Origin: Elmis aenea
Taxonomy: Eukaryota; Arthropoda; Insecta; Coleoptera; Elmidae
Direction: 5' to 3'
Length of the DNA stretch: 64,000 nt
Assembly: GCA_947652605.1 (NCBI GenBank)
Contig: OX393579.1
Span: 23,953,674 to 24,017,673 of the forward strand
Shown: piece by piece, positions 8,031-46,740 of the stretch
Layout: every line of letters starts with the position of its first letter
How positions within the stretch are numbered: position 1 is the first letter of the stretch
Made by a program: the position numbers and the translations under genes
The notes under the pieces: generated by a model
Database searches by the model: none
Told to the model about the DNA's origin: nothing
What the model saw: only the letters and a program-made list of their open reading frames with translations

Positions 8031-9070
8031 TATAAACATTTCTTTTATTAAACTAATTAAACAAAAATATTCGTGAACTAGCACAGTAATTAATTGTGAT
8101 TCATGAAATGCGGCCTAATTAAAAAACAATAATTTGCTGGACACAACTGTCAAATCTGACAGCTATTTATTATGTATTTAGTATAACATCGTGTCAATAT
8201 TATGCAATTTTAATTACATCAAAACAATTTTTAATTAAATACAGGATGAGTCCCGAACAACTTTTCGCTAGTTTTAACAGTTACAGGGTCGATTAATTGT
8301 GATGAAAGTTGTGTAGTTTCATGCTTATTATTCAGTCTAACAACAAATCCGTAGCCTTCCTACTTCAGAAATAATTTAAGAAATGTAAATATTTGATTCT
8401 CCTTAAGTACCTGTTGTGTTGCTTTTATTCTCTGAAGTAAAAAAAAAATTAAAACCGCTTTTTTTAAAAATCTTCGTTTTGACTCCATTCTGATCTTACT
8501 GAATTTGTACCAAGAATTTCGTCTGTCTTGAACCATCATCAAATTTTTTATTTCTTAAGAGCATGATTTCCCGTTATTGCACCTCGGGTGAATTTCTAAA
8601 ATTAACTTTAAAACCCATAAATAAATGTTTGAAAATCAGCATTGCAATGAAAAATAGAACCTCTCCAGCTTTTTCTAAATAACTTTTTAAACTAATAAAA
8701 AAATTATTTTTAAATCATTAACGAACGAAATTGCGTAACTTTTATTTAGTGGTACCGGCCCATTAGTTTGTCAGGTAAGCAAAATACGTGCCAGTAGTCG
8801 GACAAGCTATTTGGGCCATTCTATTGATAAAAATCTCTTTTAAAAACGTTTAAATCAAAATAATACCTATGATCAACAATAGCGAAATCATTAGAATGCT
8901 GTAGGTCGGTCACTACGTGACGTCACTGGGTGATCGTTCAGCGTTTTAGGCAAATGAATTAACATTTTATACGCAATTTCTCTATTTGTACACAAATTGC
9001 GACGATAGTTATTTGGATAGCATAACATTTTTAGCATCGTAATGACAATCGAGTAAACACAAAGCGAAGC
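8031..9070. other. intergenic or intronic stretch with a small hairpin and a CRE-like site
   Basis: No gene recognised. A short imperfect inverted repeat lies at 8757-8817 (GGCCCATTAGTTTGTC against GACAAGCTATTTGGGCC). A perfect GTGACGTCAC palindrome lies at 8917-8926, containing the CREB/ATF consensus TGACGTCA. The last 180 bases are GC-richer than their surroundings and would have joined the GC-richer block at 11936-12180 before the Harbinger insertion. Confidence 0.3.
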
Positions 9071-9341
9071 TAAGGCTAGGCGCGCACATGCGATTTTCTG
9101 TCGCGCGATTATTTAGTCGCAAAAATAGAACTCATGGTTTTAAGTACAAGTGCGCTCACATGCGACTAAATAATCGCAGCGATTAAAAAGATGCAACCTG
9201 TTCCATTTTCGCAGCGACGCGATTGTCGCAATCTTGAAATGAGTCACACACACAGGTATGAACCTACGCGCACTTGCGATTATTCTGCCGTAGTTGTGGT
9301 TGATTTGATGGTGTATATTTTATTAAAATTTTACTTTTAAA

Positions 9342-11368
9342 ATGTCTTATCCTATTGGAGAAGTATCTAGTGTTTTAGACATCGAAAGTATAATATCGGA
9401 GGTCGAAAAAAGACCAGCTATTTATAATAAACATTTAAAACAATATAGCAACCGAAATCTGAAGAAGAAGCTTTGGGGAGAAGTGTGCACAACAATTATA
9501 AACAATTGGGAGGAACTATCTCCAAGAGAAAAACAAAATAAAGGTATGTGTATAATTGATTCCTTTTATTTACATTAATTTTGACCAATAATATATGTAA
9601 TTCAAATTTTATCATATTGCCATGGTAGGGAACCTTGAGGGGATGTAAAATAATTTGCGAAATAATCTCTAACATTAAGCCCAATCATGTTAGGCCGTAT
9701 TGCAGATGGATTACAGCTTTGTAAAGGACATTCATACAACTCGTCCTCAACTCGTACACCATCCTTCTTCCGTACAAAATTATGAAGTACGCAGCAAGCT
9801 TTGATTATATGATCGGCAAATGTGGCACTCACATCTATAGGTCGATGAAAAATTCGCCATTTATTTGCCAAAATTCCAAAAGTACATTCCACCATTCGAC
9901 GAGCACGGACTAGTCTGTAATTAAAGACGCGTTGTTTCACTGTCAGATTTCTTCGTGGATAAGGCCGCAAAATATTTTGCGATAACGCAAATGCTTCATC
10001 CCCTACAATTATAAACGGCATAGGTTTTCCCGACTGATCATGGGGTAGCTTTTGTGAAATAGGAATATTTAATTGATTATTATATAATCTTCGGCCAAAA
10101 TTAGAATGTTTAAACACATTAGAGTCACTTCCAGCTCCATATGCCCCCACGTCTATCGCTGTAAAACAATAATCGGCATCCACTACACCCAGAAGAATTG
10201 TCGAGAAAAAATTCTTGTAATTATAAAATTCAGAACCGATATTATTAGGCTTCCTTAGCCTAATATGCTTGCCGTCCACTGCACCAATACAGTTTGGGAA
10301 ATTCGTTCGTTCATAAAACTGTTTAGTTATAATTATTCAACCCTCTTCTAATAATTCAGGCATAAGTAAAGGCTGCAAACATTCCCAAAATTGTTCACAT
10401 GTGTTCTTAACAATTTCTCTTATCGTTGTAGCTCCCAGTAGGTATTCAAAATGTAAAGAGTTAAAACTATTTCCGGTAGCAAGGTATCTACAAAAAATAA
10501 TATTTAATGTTTTTTAAAATAGGTACTTATATGAAAATATGTTTAATAATTATATTAAAATAATTTTTTAACATTGCAGGAAAAGAAGTGCAGAAAAAAT
10601 GGAAAAATTTGAAAGATTGTTTTACCAGAGAAATAGCAGCTCAACGCAAAACAGTGTCTGGTCAGGCCGCAAAAAAGAGAAGGAAGTATATTTATTTTGA
10701 TCAGCTGCTGTTTCTGCTTCCAACACTGAATGAGAGAGCGACTAGTGGCAACATAGAACCTTTGCAAAACGCAGAAGAAGAAGAGAGCGTATCTCTGCAA
10801 AATACTGAACAAGTACAAAACCTCACACCCAGGCACTCACAAATTTCTTCCAAGAAAGGTCGAGATAAAATATCTTCATTTGACCACAAACTCTTAAGTA
10901 TATTGGAAGAAAAAAGAGAAGAAGAAATTGACGAAGATAAAAACTTTGCCCTAATGCTAGTTCCTGTTAAAAAAACTTACTGACGACCAAAAACATTACG
11001 CCAAAGTAGAAATTTTAAATATTATGAAAAGTGCCAAAAATCTTCAACCTCCGCCGGTTTTTCCTCCGCATTATCATCATCATCCCAATTATACAATGTA
11101 TAACCAGACTTCATTACAAAATCAACAAATTCAGCCTGGGCATGTGCAATTTCTACCGTCAACAACAAATTTGGAGATTCTGCCTGGAAGAAGAGTGGTG
11201 CAGTCACCTCTGACCACTAGGAATCAGAATGCTGAAACTGCAGGTCCCATGAAAAACTACTATTCCCAGTTTTCAGAAAATGTACTATCCCCTGCTACTT
11301 CCATAACGTCTTCAGCTACTGTATCCGATAACAGTGAATTTTTTGACATGTCAAATCAAAATATTTAG
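9342..11368 (+). pseudogene. Harbinger MADF/Myb-like accessory protein gene, frameshifted
   Basis: In PIF/Harbinger elements a SANT/MADF-type DNA-binding protein works with the transposase. Exon 1 is 9342-9543, beginning MSYPIGEVSS, and ends at a good donor (G|GTATGTG). Exon 2 starts at 10580 after ACATTGCAG. Joining restores the MADF pattern: DIESIISEVEKRPAIY, then LWGEVC...NW..LSPRE from exon 1, then KEVQKKWKNLKDCF and RRKYIYFDQLLFLLP from exon 2. After an acidic stretch ending ALMLVP, a 1-base insertion or 2-base deletion near 10960-10970 breaks the frame. The expected tail (KKLTDDQKHYAKVEI) and a histidine/proline/asparagine-rich end continue in another frame to the stop at 11368. The 1.04-kb intron contains transposase exon 2 on the other strand. 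An AATAAA-like signal follows near 11438. The family call is firm; whether the frameshift is real or an assembly error is open. Confidence 0.85.
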
Positions 11369-11867
11369 TTTGTGTTTTATATTATTCTTTCTTATGGAAC
11401 GGACTGACGGCTAGGGTCATACGCCGTCATTTTTGTTGTAATAAAAATTAAGTTTTTGCGTTTTTTACCTTCATTTATTAAAACCTTTTAATGTTATTGT
11501 TTAAATAAATCGTGTGTACGTACCTTCATGTTACTGAAAGACGTTCTTCTGGCGGTATACATTTTCTCCATTTAGTGTCCTGATAAGTTATTTTGGGTTC
11601 TATTATTTGTAACAATTCGTCGAAACTTTTAATGCTCATTCTATAATAACTAAAAAATTTTTGAGGATGATCCCTCAAATCACTGTAAATTTTATAGAAC
11701 TGTCCTATTAGCAATCTTTTAGTTAACATTGGATGTACCCAATGTTGCTTTTTACGTAGTTTTCTAAATCTTCGGCGAAACAAAGCAATCACACAAGCGG
11801 TTTCTATGAAATCCATCTTGATTCTAATGTGTTGTTGCGTTTTAAAAGTCGCAAGTGCGCGATCCAT
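9602..11867 (-). pseudogene. Harbinger DDE transposase gene with two in-frame stops
   Basis: It would cut and rejoin element ends. Exon 1 runs 11867 to 11524 (N-terminal part beginning MDRALATFK, with the family-like HPQKFFSYYRMSIKSFDELL). The donor is AAG|GTACGT at 11523, and exon 2 starts at 10487 after TTTTTTGTAG. Exon 2 includes YLATGNSF, NFPNCIGAVDGKHIRL, GSDSNVF, IVGDEAF and RRMVECTFGILANKWRIF. Conserved acidic residues of the RNase-H-like DDE core are present: Asp of VDGKH, Asp of GDEAF, and Glu of MVECTFG 37 residues later. Two stops break it: TGA at 11528-11526, where the family has Leu in ..RLSVT-L-RYLATG, and TGA at 10339-10337, one base from the Trp codon expected in EEG-W-IIITKQF. 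The intron (10488-11523) contains exon 2 of the MADF gene on the other strand. The stop at 10339-10337 lies just upstream of the longest open stretch (10279-9602). Confidence 0.9.
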
Positions 11868-11935
11868 ACAAATATCTTGCGACTACGATTTTATAGTCGC
11901 GGCGACAGAAAATCGCATGTGCGCGCCTAGCCTAA

Positions 11936-12914
11936 GTGTCAGAGGGGCCTCCATACAGGCCCGCCTGATTGCTCGGGGATCTTGGGAACTTGGGTCAACT
12001 AGATTAGCGGTAATGAGCGGCATTCAATTACCATAGCAAGTGCTCTTGATGATGCGAATCGACGTGATCTGCTGGTATACGTGTTGGTGTGTACTATATA
12101 ATGGTTGTCATGTACTTACTACAGGGATTTCAGATACAAGGAGTTGCCGGTCTATTGAGTGATTTGCTATTTGTCGCAACATAATTATATTACGTTTCAA
12201 TTAATCACTCCAATTACATCTGACAGTAAGACAATCAATATGTTCATTGTCAGGGACGAACCGAATTAAAGGGAAAATAAGTAGTGGGCGAACCTATACC
12301 AAAGGGTTCGGAAAAACCGGCATAATTGATAATTATTGTAGCAAAATAAAGTGCTTCGTGCTTTTTAACATTTTAACTGATCAAATAAAAATATTTTTTT
12401 ATAGATCCCTTTCAGTGTTTTTGTCCATAACTTTAGAATCATGATAAAATAGCTACAAAAATACGAACTTTAAAACAATAACTTTTTAAATGACATAGAT
12501 ATTGTAACATTACATAATGTAAAAGAGAGTTTTAGCTTCTGAAGTCGTTAACTTAAGATCTAACCTAAGAAACAAATATGATTTTAATGACCTAAGACTT
12601 GGATTTTTATGGTATTATGTTTTTGATCAGATGTACAAAATGAAAACCTAGTCTTTATATATTTTAAGTTCCTTCTACCAATCTCTCTGTAAATTGATTG
12701 AAAATTATTTATTCACAACCATTTTAATTTTTTTTTACGTAATTTGTTAAATACCTACATAATCATCTTTGCGATGTGCACAATGTCTTTAACATTGAAC
12801 AAGTTTTACGAATCTATCAAGACGGAGCTTCGCATGTAAACTTTAAACAGCTGAGTTGCATATTAACATCTCTTCTCAATGTGTCATTCTACCCGAAGTG
12901 ATGTACGAGAAAGT
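11936..12914. other. non-coding stretch, GC-richer at its start
   Basis: 11936-12180 is clearly GC-richer than the local background (for example GAGGGGCCTCCATACAGGCC) and borders the Harbinger insertion. No open frame with a recognisable motif. The rest is ordinary AT-rich DNA. Confidence 0.3.
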
Positions 12915-30525: not shown

Positions 30526-31188
30526 CCGTGTCCGGAACATTCTTCGCCCACAATTCTTCGCCTCCACAATTCTTCGCTCCCACAATTCTTCGCCCAAAAT
30601 TCTTCGCCCACAATTCTTCGCCTCCACAATCCTTCGCCCATAATTCTTCGCCTCCACAATTCTTCGCCTCCACAATTCTTCGCCCACAAATCTTCGCCCA
30701 CAATTCTTCGCATCCACAATTCTTCGCCCACCATTCTTTGCCTACACAATTCTTCGCCGCCACAATTCTTCGCCGCCACAATTTTTCGCCGCATACAAGC
30801 AAATTTTGTTTGTAAATGTGATTTTACATTCGGTTAGGTTAGGTCAGATCAAGTCAGGTTAAGTCGGGTTAGGTTAGGTAAATTTAATTTTTATTCATAC
30901 TAAATAACATAAACAAGATAAAAAATCACAACATACGCTATTTATGTAGCAATTTTTAAACAATATTAAAAGAAGAAGTATTAACATACAAGAAACGACT
31001 TAACGCTAATGTAAAATTACGTTATAAATAAAAATAATCACATTACAAATAAAATTTGTGATATGCTTGTATGCGGCGAAAAATTGTGGCGGCAAAGAAT
31101 TGTGGCGGCGAAGAATTGTGTAGGCGAAGAAATGTGGGCGACGAATTGTTGAGGCGAAGATTTGTGGGCGAAGAATGTTCCTAGACCC
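30526..31188. mobile_element. minisatellite-ended inverted-repeat element, copy 1
   Basis: Both ends are arrays of a 14-16 base unit, CACAATTCTTCGCC(T/G)C: about 16 units at 30536-30790 and an inverted, shorter array at 31075-31175. The outer tips are CCGTGTCCGGAACATT and AATGTTCCTAGACCC. The flanks are CTATTTAA (30518-30525) and CTATTTGA (31189-31196), an 8-bp duplication with one mismatch. The 280-base core has GGTTAGGTTAGG words and no gene. The long serine/proline/phenylalanine frames across the arrays are artefacts of repeat length. Confidence 0.85.
30536..30790. repeat. CACAATTCTTCGCC minisatellite (left array, copy 1)
   Basis: Tandem units of 14-16 bases, varying mainly as CGCCCA, CGCCTC and CGCCGC between the constant CAATTCTT cores. 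The inner end of the array turns to CGCCGCATACAAGC, the same inner boundary as in the other three arrays. Confidence 0.9.
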
Positions 31189-36543: not shown

Positions 36544-38312
36544 TACATATAGTTAAGCACTACAGGCCATTTAGGCCTAGGGCTCGGTTTGCTGTCTCCC
36601 TCCACTTTTTTCTATTTTTGGCTGCCTCTGTCCAGTTCGACACTTTTAGTTTTTTCAAATCATAATCGACCGCTTCCAACCATCTTTTCTTAGGTCTCCC
36701 TCTTTTTCTCACACCCATCCTACTTGCTTTAATCATTATCTTCGCGTTTCTTTGGTTGGAGAGGCGTTGTGCATGCCCAAGCCATCTTATTCTCTGGGCT
36801 CCTACTACTTCGGTTATGGACGGTTCTTTGTACAATCCCATTACTTCCTCGTTTGTCCTTCTTCTCCATTCACCGGTATTTGTTTTTATTCCCCCGTAGA
36901 TCCTTCGCAAGAATTTCCTTTCCCACCTTTCTAGGTCTTCTTTTTCTTTTTTGTTGATTATCCAGGTTTCACAAGCGTATGTTACAGTGGGTCTTAATAC
37001 TGTTTTGTACAATCTTACCTTGGCCTTTCTTGAAATAATGTTGGATCTAAGAATTATCGCTAGAGAACCCGCGCATTTATTACCTTTTGCGAGTCTCGCG
37101 TTTATTTCTTTTCCATTGTCGCAGTTATCAGTAATTTGTACACCCAGATAAATGAAATTTCTTATTTTCTCAAAGCGTCTCTCCTTGTTCTGTTCGATTT
37201 TGATAGATAGATATTCATCCCCTTCTATGTCTTTCCTTTTAGGTCCCATTATCATATATTTGGTTTTCGATTCGTTGATACTTAGTCCCATATTTTTTGC
37301 TTTGTCCTCTAACTTCCTGACAATGTTTTGGATATCTTTTTTTGTTTTGCAGATGATCGCAAGGTCGGCTGCGAAAGCGATGCATTGGTGGTTGTCTGCG
37401 TATATGTTGCCATTTCTGTTAATTCCACTATCTCGAATTATCTTTTCTAAGGCTATATTAAATAACAATGGCGACAGTGGGTCTCCTTGTCTTAGTCCTC
37501 TAGATACTTTAAAAACCTTTGACTTCATGTTTCTGTTTTTTATAAAATTTTCTGTGTTTTGCAGAGTCGCCTTTGTCATAATTATTAGCTTGTCAGGTAT
37601 ATTAAATTCTTTCATGGCTATGTACAATTTTTCCGTAATTATTGAGTCGTACGCTTGCTTAAAGTCTATAAATACTACATGTAGCTCCGTGTTATACTCG
37701 TAATGGCTCGATTGAATTTGCTTTAACGTAAAAATTTGATCGATGGTGGATCTATTGGGTCTGAAACCGCCTTGGTAATCACCTGTGATGTTTTCAGTGT
37801 AGCTGGTGAGTTGTTCCTTTATTACTGTCGCTAATACTTTGTAGGCTGTGTTTAGGAGAGCTATGCCTCTGTAGTTGTCGCATACTGTTCTGTCGCCTTT
37901 TTTGTGTATTGGGCTAAGCATGGCCCTTGCCCAGCTTTTAGGGATTTTTTCTTCGTGCCATATGTCTATCAGTAGTTTTGTAATTTCTTCCTGCAGTTCC
38001 TCACCTCCATATTTAATCAATTCTGCTGCTATTCCGTCTTCTCCCGGGCTTTTGTTATTTTTTAAGTTCTTAATTATTTTCTTTATTTCAGTTCTCGTTG
38101 GGGGTTGCGCCTCTTGTTGTTGTTGTTCATTCTCTTGGGTTTCTAGATTTTCAACCCTTTCCTCCCTTTCGTCTAATTCATTCATTCCGTTGATTCCATG
38201 TGGTTCATCCTCTATTCCATTTAAGAGTTCCTCAAAGTATTCCTTCCACCTCTCGATTATTTCATTGTCTCCTCCCAGTAGCCTTCCAGTTTTTGTCCTA
38301 TAGAACGGTGTC
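36544..38312 (-). mobile_element. 5'-truncated RTE-like LINE
   Basis: A non-LTR retrotransposon in minus orientation. CATACATATA is present on both sides (36534-36543 and 38313-38322), a target duplication within the MITE. The 3' end lacks poly(A) and finishes in a short TATATGTA-like repeat, as RTE-type LINEs often do. The 5' end is cut at about 38312, where the open frame is still continuing upstream, so the endonuclease part is missing. Confidence 0.85.
36560..38312 (-). CDS. LINE reverse transcriptase ORF, 5'-truncated, FAAD in place of FADD
   Basis: An uninterrupted frame; the first Met is at 38185, but the frame stays open to the truncation point at 38312 (..IIERWKEYFEELLNGIED..), so that Met is internal. 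Residue order from the Met: SPGEDGIAAELIKYGGEE, then PIHKKGDRTVCDNYRGIALL, GGFRPNRSTIDQIF, motif A VVFIDFKQAYDS, RGLRQGDPLSPLLFN, motif C region IAFAADLAII, then LGVQITDN, TYACETWIINKKEKEDLERW, RIRWLGHAQR and RKRGRPKKRW. These are the marks of LINE polymerases with the RTE-like CETW tail. Motif C normally reads (Y/F)ADD. Here residue 273, codon at 37369-37367, is GCC (Ala) where GAC (Asp) is expected, so the copy should be catalytically dead. The clade call (RTE-like) is from the tail and memory. Confidence 0.88.
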
Positions 38313-38605
38313 CATACATATAAAATATATTATATGTTTGTATATTTTACTTATAAATGCTATTTTTGGGTACGTTTGACCTTAAATTTTTTTAAAAAAT
38401 TGCCTATGGTGCTGTTACCCGGAGGCTACCACGCCCTGGACCCCCTACAACATTTTCTTGCAACTCACTTTTTGTATCTAGCCTCCCTAGATCATTTTCT
38501 AATTTTAGCATTACCATCCCCGTTTCAAATCAATCAGTACTATTTTTGCAAATTAAAACAATATCCCCCCTGAAATATTTTTCTGCGTACGCCACTGATA
38601 ACAAC

Positions 38606-45760: not shown

Positions 45761-46740
45761 GAAAAGGTAATGGCAACACAGTTTTGGAACTGGCAAAGAG
45801 TTTTGCTGATACAGAATAAAAGTAAAGGCCAAACCACCTCAAATATGGGTCTAGGAACATTCTTCGCCCACAATTCTTCGCCCACAGTTTTTCGCCCACA
45901 ATTCTTCGCCTCCACAATTCTTCGACCACATTTCTTCGCCTACACAATTCTTCGCCGCCACAATTCTTCGCCGCCACAATTTTTTGCCGCATACAAACAT
46001 ATCACAAATGTTGTTTGTAAATGTGATTGTTTTTATTCATAACGTAATTTTTACAGATTATTTTATATTAGCCATTAGCCTAAAGTTGTTTCTTGTATAT
46101 TAACACTTCGTCTTTTAATATTATGTTTAAAAATTGCTACATAAATAGCGTATGTTGTGATTTTTAACTTTGTTTATGTTATTATAGTATAAATAAAAAT
46201 TAAATTAACCAAACCCAACCTGACCTGACCTAGCCTAATGTAAAATAATCTGTAAAAATTACGTTATAAATAAAAATAATCACATTTACAAACAAAATTT
46301 GTGATATGCTTATATGCAGCGAAAAATTGTGGCGGTGAAGAATTGTGGCGGCGAAGAATTGTGTAGGCGAAGAATTGTGGGCGAAGAATTGTGGAGGCGA
46401 AGAATTGTGGGCGAAGAACTGTGGGCGAAGAATGTTCCGGACACGCTCAAATATAGGTTAAAGGAAGCCATGAATGAAAAACAGAGAAGTAAATTCACAA
46501 AAGGGGTGCGCTTAATTCATGACAATTCGCAAGTTCATACAGCCCAGATTGTTTTGATCGTTTTGAGCTGGCACCAAGTGATTTTTATCTTGTTCCCAAA
46601 TCTGAAATTAGGTCTTCGCGTAAAGCATTTTGACGATCATAAATCATTGCAAGCAGCATTAAATAAGCATTTTGAAGGCAAATAGAGAAACTATTTGTAT
46701 AAAGGAATGATCATCTACCAAATGTATTCATGAGGAGAAT
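45761..46740 (+). pseudogene. mariner transposase fragment 2, split by the minisatellite element
   Basis: The left part, 45761-45846, gives EKVMATQFWNWQRVLLIQ and KGQTTSN. The right part resumes at 46455 with LKEAMNEKQRSKFTKGVRLI then HDNSQVHTAQI, the HDNA.. motif holding the second catalytic Asp. A shifted frame has FELAPSDFYL with the third Asp region, and LQAALNKHFEGK follows. It is interrupted at 45847-46446 by the minisatellite-ended element, with TCAAATAT on both sides. Its left part overlaps in content with fragment 1 (both cover the SAGKVMA region), so the two are separate insertions or a duplication. Confidence 0.78.
45847..46446. mobile_element. minisatellite-ended inverted-repeat element, copy 2 (inverted)
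   Basis: The tips GGGTCTAGGAACATTC and GAATGTTCCGGACACGC are the inverse of those of copy 1. Arrays of the CACAATTCTTCGCC unit run at 45866-45990 and, inverted, at 46320-46435. The core carries AACCAAACCCAACCTGACC and the block ACATAAATAGCGTATGTTGT, both inverted relative to copy 1. A perfect 8-bp duplication, TCAAATAT, lies at 45839-45846 and 46447-46454. It is inserted within a mariner relic. No gene. Confidence 0.9.

What the first reader, a model, noticed from the sequence alone, without database searches (positions are those of the whole stretch)
9342..11867. Harbinger transposon whose two genes lie inside each other's introns
Reading both strands gives MADF exon 1 (+, 9342-9543), transposase exon 2 (-, 9602-10487), MADF exon 2 (+, 10580-11368), transposase exon 1 (-, 11524-11867). 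Each gene's second exon is in the other's intron on the opposite strand, and the two introns are both about 1.04 kb. The two transcripts would be antisense over most of their length, and each pre-mRNA must splice out the other's exon. PIF/Harbinger elements are known to carry two genes; I do not recall this interlocked layout as standard. It could couple expression of the two proteins or generate double-stranded RNA.
Basis: partly seen in the sequence, partly recalled or inferred. Interest (0 to 1): 0.75.

Follow-up and report, generated by a model that had tools for sequence, protein, structure and literature searches.

The report
Transposon with two mutually nested genes
In this genome one group of jumping genes packs its two protein genes so that the last exon of each sits inside the other's intron on the opposite DNA strand, and the layout is shared by seven diverged families, so it is a real, inherited design and not an accident of one copy.

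Summary
Window 9074-11932 is a 2,859-bp PIF/Harbinger transposon (31-bp perfect inverted repeats, TAA duplication) with a MADF gene on + and a DDE transposase on -. Exon order is MADF1+, Tn2-, MADF2+, Tn1-. Both introns are GT-AG and exactly 1,036 bp.

Nine of nine loci where all four exon blocks were found have this order. Seven families have all four splice sites in the interlocked order, 28 of 28 sites GT/AG. One relative (L008) has both spliced genes open. Four loci outside the clade have a tail-to-tail neighbour instead (Myb/MADF confirmed in two). A second interlocked type (L006) has its introns elsewhere in both genes.

Poly(A) signals sit in the small gaps (11 of 12), so mature mRNAs should hardly overlap; only the pre-mRNAs are antisense. 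Expression coupling and dsRNA are untested, since no RNA was available. The layout is absent from the passages I read; key papers and Repbase could not be read. New variant of a known kind.

The parts
9071..9073 (.). target site duplication TAA, left
9074..11932 (.). whole PIF/Harbinger element, 2,859 bp
9074..9104 (+). left terminal inverted repeat, 31 bp (one search reports 35-nt arms 9070-9104 / 11902-11936, 97% complementary, which include flanking bases; the one mismatch lies in the flank)
11902..11932 (-). right terminal inverted repeat, 31 bp
9342..9543 (+). MADF gene exon 1 (MADF profile 2-36), donor AAAG|GTATGT
9544..10579 (+). MADF intron, 1,036 bp, GT-AG, holds transposase exon 2
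9565..9570 (-). AATAAA for the transposase, between its stop and the MADF donor
9602..10487 (-). transposase exon 2 (DDE_Tnp_4); in-frame TGA at 10337-10339 in this copy
10488..10579 (.). 92-bp stretch that carries the 3' splice sites of both introns back to back, one on each strand
10488..11523 (-). transposase intron, 1,036 bp, GT-AG, holds MADF exon 2
10580..11368 (+). MADF gene exon 2 (MADF profile 42-84 and C-terminus); in this copy in two frames that overlap at 10961-10983
11440..11445 (+). first of three poly(A) hexamers (11440, 11477, 11504) for MADF, between its stop and the transposase donor
11524..11867 (-). transposase exon 1; in-frame TGA at 11526-11528 just before the donor in this copy
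11933..11935 (.). target site duplication TAA, right

Best explanation
A defective copy of a PIF/Harbinger cut-and-paste transposon in which the two genes are mutually nested. Shown by sequence: the MADF gene starts near the left end, the transposase near the right end; the last exon of each lies in the other's intron; the two 3' splice sites stand back to back in the middle; each gene's poly(A) signal lies in the short gap before the partner's first exon; the layout is inherited by diverged families. Inferred: transcription runs inward from both ends, each pre-mRNA splices out the partner's exon, the mature mRNAs come from almost non-overlapping DNA, and the two proteins act together at the element ends, as reported for zebrafish Harbinger3_DR. 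Inferred origin: a tail-to-tail MADF/transposase pair was duplicated in tandem and the copies lost complementary halves, leaving MADF1, Tn2, MADF2', Tn1'. The layout is first of all compact packing that ties both genes to intact ends and to splicing; regulation by antisense RNA is possible but unproven.
For: Exons, splice sites, TIR and TSD. Own-genome copies: L010 99%, L011 96%, L039 as two stretches of 99% and 93%, with TSDs TTA, TAA, TAA. Nine of nine loci with all four exon blocks have the same order. Seven families with all four splice sites in order, 28 of 28 GT/AG, the transposase intron at one codon position and phase in the six type I families. L008 has both spliced proteins open, 390 and 276 aa, and copies at 97.4-98.7% identity at other sites, so it moved recently. 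Third-position excess between window and L042: Tn1 21/13/44, Tn2 51/32/99 at codon positions 1/2/3, and over the short alignable parts of MADF exon 2 6/3/13 and 3/2/5. Poly(A) hexamers in 11 of 12 gaps of six families, shuffle mean 6.75, 4 of 2000 shuffles reach 11, wrong strand 5 of 12. Four of six named MADF models of other arthropods (Zootermopsis, Cryptotermes, Cinara, Oratosquilla) run through the same junction, judged by eye.
Against: No transcript was seen; all splicing is inferred. 123 of the 150 DDE hits (a capped list) had no partner exon within reach of these queries (counted by hand). In L071 no transposase exon 1 was found in the expected place, and a weak hit (E 0.007) lies on the other strand. 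The transposase poly(A) hexamer is missing from the gap in the type II family; the seventh family, L072, was not put to that test. Against the older copies L040 and L041 there is no third-position excess in MADF exon 1 (7/7/8, 7/7/9), the C-terminal part of MADF exon 2 (7/4/7, 10/6/4) or Tn2 (5/9/7, 17/15/18), as expected of decaying copies but no support either. Gene models of other species are predictions and their DNA layout was not seen; of the six named MADF models one (P0129, Acanthoscelides) begins differently and one (P0135, Diabrotica) was not read. The duplication model is inference.
Confidence: 0.85

Rival explanations
1. The interlock is an accident of one copy, for example two elements inserted into or recombined with each other, and not a functional gene plan.
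For: The window copy has broken reading frames in both genes.
Against: One TIR pair and one TSD enclose all four exons; the same order occurs in 9 of 9 complete loci and in six further families whose transposase exon 2 is 37-52% identical to the window's; both genes are open in L008.
Confidence: 0.03
2. The interlock is a regulatory device: convergent pre-mRNAs over 1.8 kb make nuclear dsRNA or transcriptional interference and so limit copy number or couple the two proteins.
For: Coding spans overlap by 1,767 bp on opposite strands; the order has outlasted deep divergence. Nested genes can disturb each other's splicing and poly(A) use in human cells (PMC3192792, abstract and outline seen).
Against: Poly(A) hexamers in the gaps keep the mature mRNAs apart, which argues for packing first; no RNA or small-RNA data were available.
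Confidence: 0.25
3. The layout is an already catalogued feature of some PIF/Harbinger families (for example in Repbase entries or the 2007 Drosophila PIF paper), only not discussed in what I could read.
For: PIF elements are well catalogued: 214 families in PMC4482050 (section 5 read). Cockroach gene BPLG2, a domesticated PIF transposase, has two exons with a 900-1500 bp intron, about 5400 in one species (PMC9710019 section 8), as an interlocked ancestor would leave.
Against: None of the text that I saw mentions it: PMC9710019 passages and sections 3, 6, 8, PMC4482050 passages and section 5, PMC9179366 passages, PMC2213677 passages. Repbase was not available and the 2007 Drosophila PIF paper is not held.
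Confidence: 0.4

Closest known systems
PIF/Harbinger DNA transposons (animal, MADF type)
   Same: TWA duplication, short TIRs, DDE_Tnp_4 transposase, Myb/SANT/MADF partner gene
   Different: The genes are mutually nested on opposite strands; in the Medicago elements of PMC2213677 (passages) orf1 lies upstream or downstream of the transposase, and four other PIF loci of this genome have an opposite gene side by side (Myb/SANT confirmed by Pfam in two of the four)
Zebrafish Harbinger3_DR
   Same: Two proteins, transposase and Myb-like, needed together (as told in PMC9710019 section 3)
   Different: Gene layout of Harbinger3_DR was not checked here
BPLG1, BPLG2, APLG/APM domesticated PIF genes of insects
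   Same: Two-exon transposase genes (BPLG); adjacent transposase and MADF genes (APLG/APM)
   Different: Host genes without TIR or TSD; no mutual nesting is described in the sections read
Nested genes in introns (general knowledge, not from a call)
   Same: A gene or exon inside another gene's intron on the opposite strand
   Different: There, as a rule, one gene lies wholly inside one intron; here each gene gives its last exon to the other's intron

Membership tests
PIF/Harbinger | 3-bp target site duplication TWA | tested here: met
   TAA at the window copy; TAA or TTA at 4 of 4 full-length copies; definition from PMC4482050 section 5
PIF/Harbinger | terminal inverted repeats, mostly under 60 bp, first base A or G | tested here: met
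   31 bp inside the element, first base G
PIF/Harbinger | DDE transposase of the DDE_Tnp_4 kind | tested here: met
   PF13359 E 1.6e-32 in the window, 5e-37 in L008
PIF/Harbinger | helix-turn-helix motif in the transposase | tested here: inconclusive
   only CENP-B_N at E 0.012, below its cut-off; none listed in L008
PIF/Harbinger | second gene with a Myb/SANT/MADF domain | tested here: met
   PF10545 split over both plus exons; whole in the spliced L008 protein, E 4.2e-19
PIF/Harbinger | transposition | not testable with these tools
   near-identical L008 copies at several sites are indirect evidence only
mutually nested gene pair | an exon of each gene inside an intron of the other, on opposite strands | tested here: met
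   order and GT-AG sites in seven families
mutually nested gene pair | both spliced transcripts made | not testable with these tools
   no RNA data; four protein models of other arthropods cross the MADF junction

The most novel reading that the evidence does not exclude
Mutual nesting is the ancestral gene plan of a large PIF/Harbinger clade of arthropods and perhaps frogs. It arose by tandem duplication of a tail-to-tail gene pair and complementary loss, at least twice, since the type II family (L006) has the same order with both introns at other codon positions. It would be an obligatory two-way splicing architecture in which one short central stretch is the 3' splice site of both genes.
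Probability: 0.35. Interest if true: 0.75.

Novelty: new variant of a known kind. Interest (0 to 1): 0.55.

Why it matters
Two genes that each depend on splicing out the other's exon are a strict test of how convergent, antisense transcription units can coexist. That several diverged families keep the plan shows that it works. It gives a ready system, with a young family of which at least one copy (L008) is open in both genes and with side-by-side cousins in the same genome, for testing transcriptional interference, antisense RNA and the origin of nested genes. It may also explain the long single introns of some domesticated PIF transposases such as cockroach BPLG2.

Tried and rejected
The transposase exon 2 protein search in the own genome did not complete; the Pfam search served instead. 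Scans of viral contigs and genome contigs for relatives in other species found none. Rfam: nothing in the window. The first tree used a wrong frame for L005 and L006 and was replaced, from which L003, L076 and L041 were dropped. In one search a tree with all interlocked rows held together against the rest was disfavoured (p-AU 0.0127): proteins of other species, whose layout is unknown, fall among them; the place of type II is unresolved, and L001 and L007 are flagged as long branches. The poly(A) count (12 of 12) used a wrong boundary for L006 and was replaced (11 of 12). In the script one splice pattern was not found and gave a false join; one search corrects it. L068 looked like a counter-example but by eye holds a solo MADF exon 1 beside a separate internally deleted element in the usual order. 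Equal intron lengths as a functional signal: rejected, six other families differ.

Full report
WHAT IS THERE. Window 9074-11932 is a complete PIF/Harbinger element of 2,859 bp with TAA on both sides. Its inverted repeats pair perfectly over 31 bp inside the element (one search gives 35-nt arms, 97% complementary, flank included), and a 22-mer is identical at both ends (shuffle mean 0.00). The minus strand carries a DDE_Tnp_4 transposase exon (9602-10487), the plus strand a MADF gene whose single Pfam domain is split between two exons. The four splice sites are GT-AG: MADF 9543|10580, transposase 11524|10487, each intron 1,036 bp.

THIS COPY IS BROKEN. The transposase has a TGA at 11526-11528 and one at 10337-10339; MADF exon 2 lies in two frames that overlap at 10961-10983. 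The copy cannot tell whether the plan works; relatives can.

COPIES IN THE SAME GENOME. A DNA search (only 40 of 185 candidates scored) found full-length copies L010 (99%), L011 (96%) and L039 (two stretches, 99% and 93%) with TSD TTA, TAA and TAA, older relatives L040, L041 and L042, and short internally deleted copies matching element positions 1-372 and 2529-2862, mostly at 80-90%. Of the 16 short-copy loci L019-L034 put, a both-ended element was read in 14: 13 of 690-695 bp (one of them, L031, with a poorer right end) and one of 629 bp. Eleven of these 14 have equal TWA duplications; L030, L031 and L032 do not. These short copies keep both ends with the beginnings of both first exons and have lost the middle.

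CONSERVATION OF THE LAYOUT. I combined the hit tables of DDE (150 places), MADF exon 2 (53), transposase exon 1 (150) and MADF exon 1 (69); the lists of 150 are capped. In one search nine loci carried all four blocks, and nine of nine had the order MADF1+, Tn2-, MADF2+, Tn1- (or its mirror). Incomplete sets agree with that order: 10 Tn2/MADF2, 7 MADF2/Tn1, 6 MADF1/MADF2/Tn1, 6 Tn2/Tn1, 5 MADF1/MADF2, 2 MADF1/Tn1. Two clusters do not fit simply: C4:49297501, where a MADF exon lies beside a short copy, and C2:42396228, with two DDE hits. 27 of the 150 DDE hits fall into such clusters, 123 do not (counted by hand). tblastn of the window's exons on held loci gave all four in that order in L009 (the window copy), L010, L011, L039 and L040. 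In L042, whose MADF exon 2 is nearly gone, and in L041, which lacks transposase exon 1, the exons found are in that order. In L004, L008, L052, L070, L072 and L075 MADF exon 2 was below tblastn's reach and is placed; in L073 and L074 MADF exon 1 was placed by eye. In L071 transposase exon 1 was not found where expected, and a weak hit lies on the other strand.

SPLICE SITES. For seven families I located all four sites: window, L008, L070, L072, L073, L074 (type I) and L006 (type II). In 7 of 7 the order is MADF donor, transposase acceptor, MADF acceptor, transposase donor, and 28 of 28 sites are GT or AG. I picked the boundaries by homology and then read the dinucleotides, so this is a consistency check, not a blind test. 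In the six type I families the transposase intron falls at the same codon and phase (T-L/I-R|YL). The two 3' splice sites stand back to back, 30, 36, 61, 89, 92, 98 and 237 bp apart. Transposase exon 2 of the six other families is 37-52% identical to the window's.

A WORKING PLAN. In L008 both spliced genes are open: transposase 390 aa, MADF 276 aa, with DDE_Tnp_4 5e-37, a whole MADF domain 4.2e-19 and BESS 5.6e-4, the last just under its cut-off. L008, L004, L052 and L075 are 97.4-98.7% identical over 2.4-2.7 kb at four sites on three contigs, so such elements moved recently. Between the window and L042 differences pile up at third codon positions of the minus frame (Tn1 21/13/44, Tn2 51/32/99) and, over short alignable parts, of MADF exon 2 (6/3/13, 3/2/5). 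Against L040 and L041 the first part of MADF exon 2 shows an excess (13/8/18, 14/10/20), but MADF exon 1 (7/7/8, 7/7/9), the C-terminal part of MADF exon 2 (7/4/7, 10/6/4) and Tn2 (5/9/7, 17/15/18) do not.

TRANSCRIPT ENDS. In six of the seven families (L072 left out) I looked for AATAAA or ATTAAA between each gene's stop (plus 20 nt) and the partner's donor: 11 of 12 gaps have one, against a shuffle mean of 6.75 (4 of 2000 shuffles reach 11) and 5 of 12 on the wrong strand. If these are used, each mature mRNA ends about where the partner's first exon begins.

A SECOND TYPE. L006 (C3:27.456 Mb) has transposase exon 1, MADF last exon, transposase exon 2, then two further MADF exons, strands alternating in the same way. 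But the transposase intron lies about 42 codons further on, and the MADF intron that holds the transposase exon lies after the whole MADF domain (by eye; MADF exon 1 E 9.5e-7). Its MADF reading frame is open through three exons; its transposase is cut short by a stop. This means either a second origin or moved introns.

OTHER LAYOUTS. Of six loci outside the clade, four have an opposite, tail-to-tail open frame beside the transposase: L001, L002, L007 and L077. Pfam confirms Myb/SANT in L002 and L077 only; the neighbours in L001 (first stretch) and L007 match no such family, so there the label is by position and length. L076 and L003 show no clear partner. In the tree the four side-by-side rows are parted from all interlocked rows and the arthropod and frog proteins (100/99), with a warning about long branches (L001, L007). 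Inside that second group the interlocked rows are mixed with proteins of other species whose layout I could not see, and holding the interlocked rows together is disfavoured (p-AU 0.0127). Together these fit an ancestral interlock in the group but do not prove it.

OTHER SPECIES. With the L008 transposase, 5,415 proteins passed and the best 120 were listed: 58% identity in a moth (Chilo), 57% in a butterfly, a crab, an aphid and a termite, 52% in a stick insect and frogs, and shorter metagenome fragments up to 71%. The MADF searches brought six named models. Four of them (Zootermopsis, Cryptotermes, Cinara, Oratosquilla) run without a break through the type I junction, e.g. KKQLG|VQLQKKW (by eye); Acanthoscelides P0129 begins differently and Diabrotica P0135 was not read. 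They are gene predictions. Two metagenome contig lengths (2,422 and 6,162) each appear for both a transposase exon-2 protein and a MADF exon-2 protein (P0037/P0126, P0047/P0141), which suggests but does not prove shared contigs.

HOW IT MAY HAVE ARISEN (inference). Duplicating a tail-to-tail unit M1 M2 T2 T1 in tandem and losing M2, T1 and M1', and T2' gives M1 T2 M2' T1', with splicing across the gaps. This predicts back-to-back acceptors at one fusion point and donors next to the partner's stop, which is what is seen.

WHAT IS KNOWN. PIF elements have a transposase and a Myb-like gene that act together (PMC9710019 section 3; PMC4482050 section 5). I saw passages and sections 3, 6 and 8 of PMC9710019, passages and section 5 of PMC4482050, passages of PMC9179366 and PMC2213677, and the abstract and outline of PMC3192792; none of what I saw describes mutual nesting. 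Most subscription papers and Repbase could not be read, so a prior record is quite possible.

Noticed in passing
L019-L034, e.g. G000:C8:22627199-22627894: A family of about 694-bp internally deleted relatives, keeping both ends and the starts of both first exons; 11 of 14 read have equal TWA duplications
   Followed up: partly
G000:C5:8330124-8330337 and G000:C2:15746612-15746813: Short palindromes of about 200 bp made of the element's first 88-113 bp in both orientations
   Followed up: no
window 36560-38329: 589-aa open frame on the minus strand that looks like a LINE reverse transcriptase (label by eye)
   Followed up: no
window 30539-30790 with 31073-31176, and 45859-45988 with 46319-46433: Two pairs of tandem arrays of an ATTCTTCGCCC(C)ACA unit in opposite orientation a few hundred bp apart, perhaps two copies of one non-autonomous element
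   Followed up: no
L006 2202-2208: In the type II family the transposase stop codon (full-length frame as in L005) and the end of an opposite-strand MADF exon are only a few bases apart, extreme packing
   Followed up: partly
L068 900-1316: A retrotransposon reverse transcriptase fragment beside two PIF fragments (label by eye)
   Followed up: no
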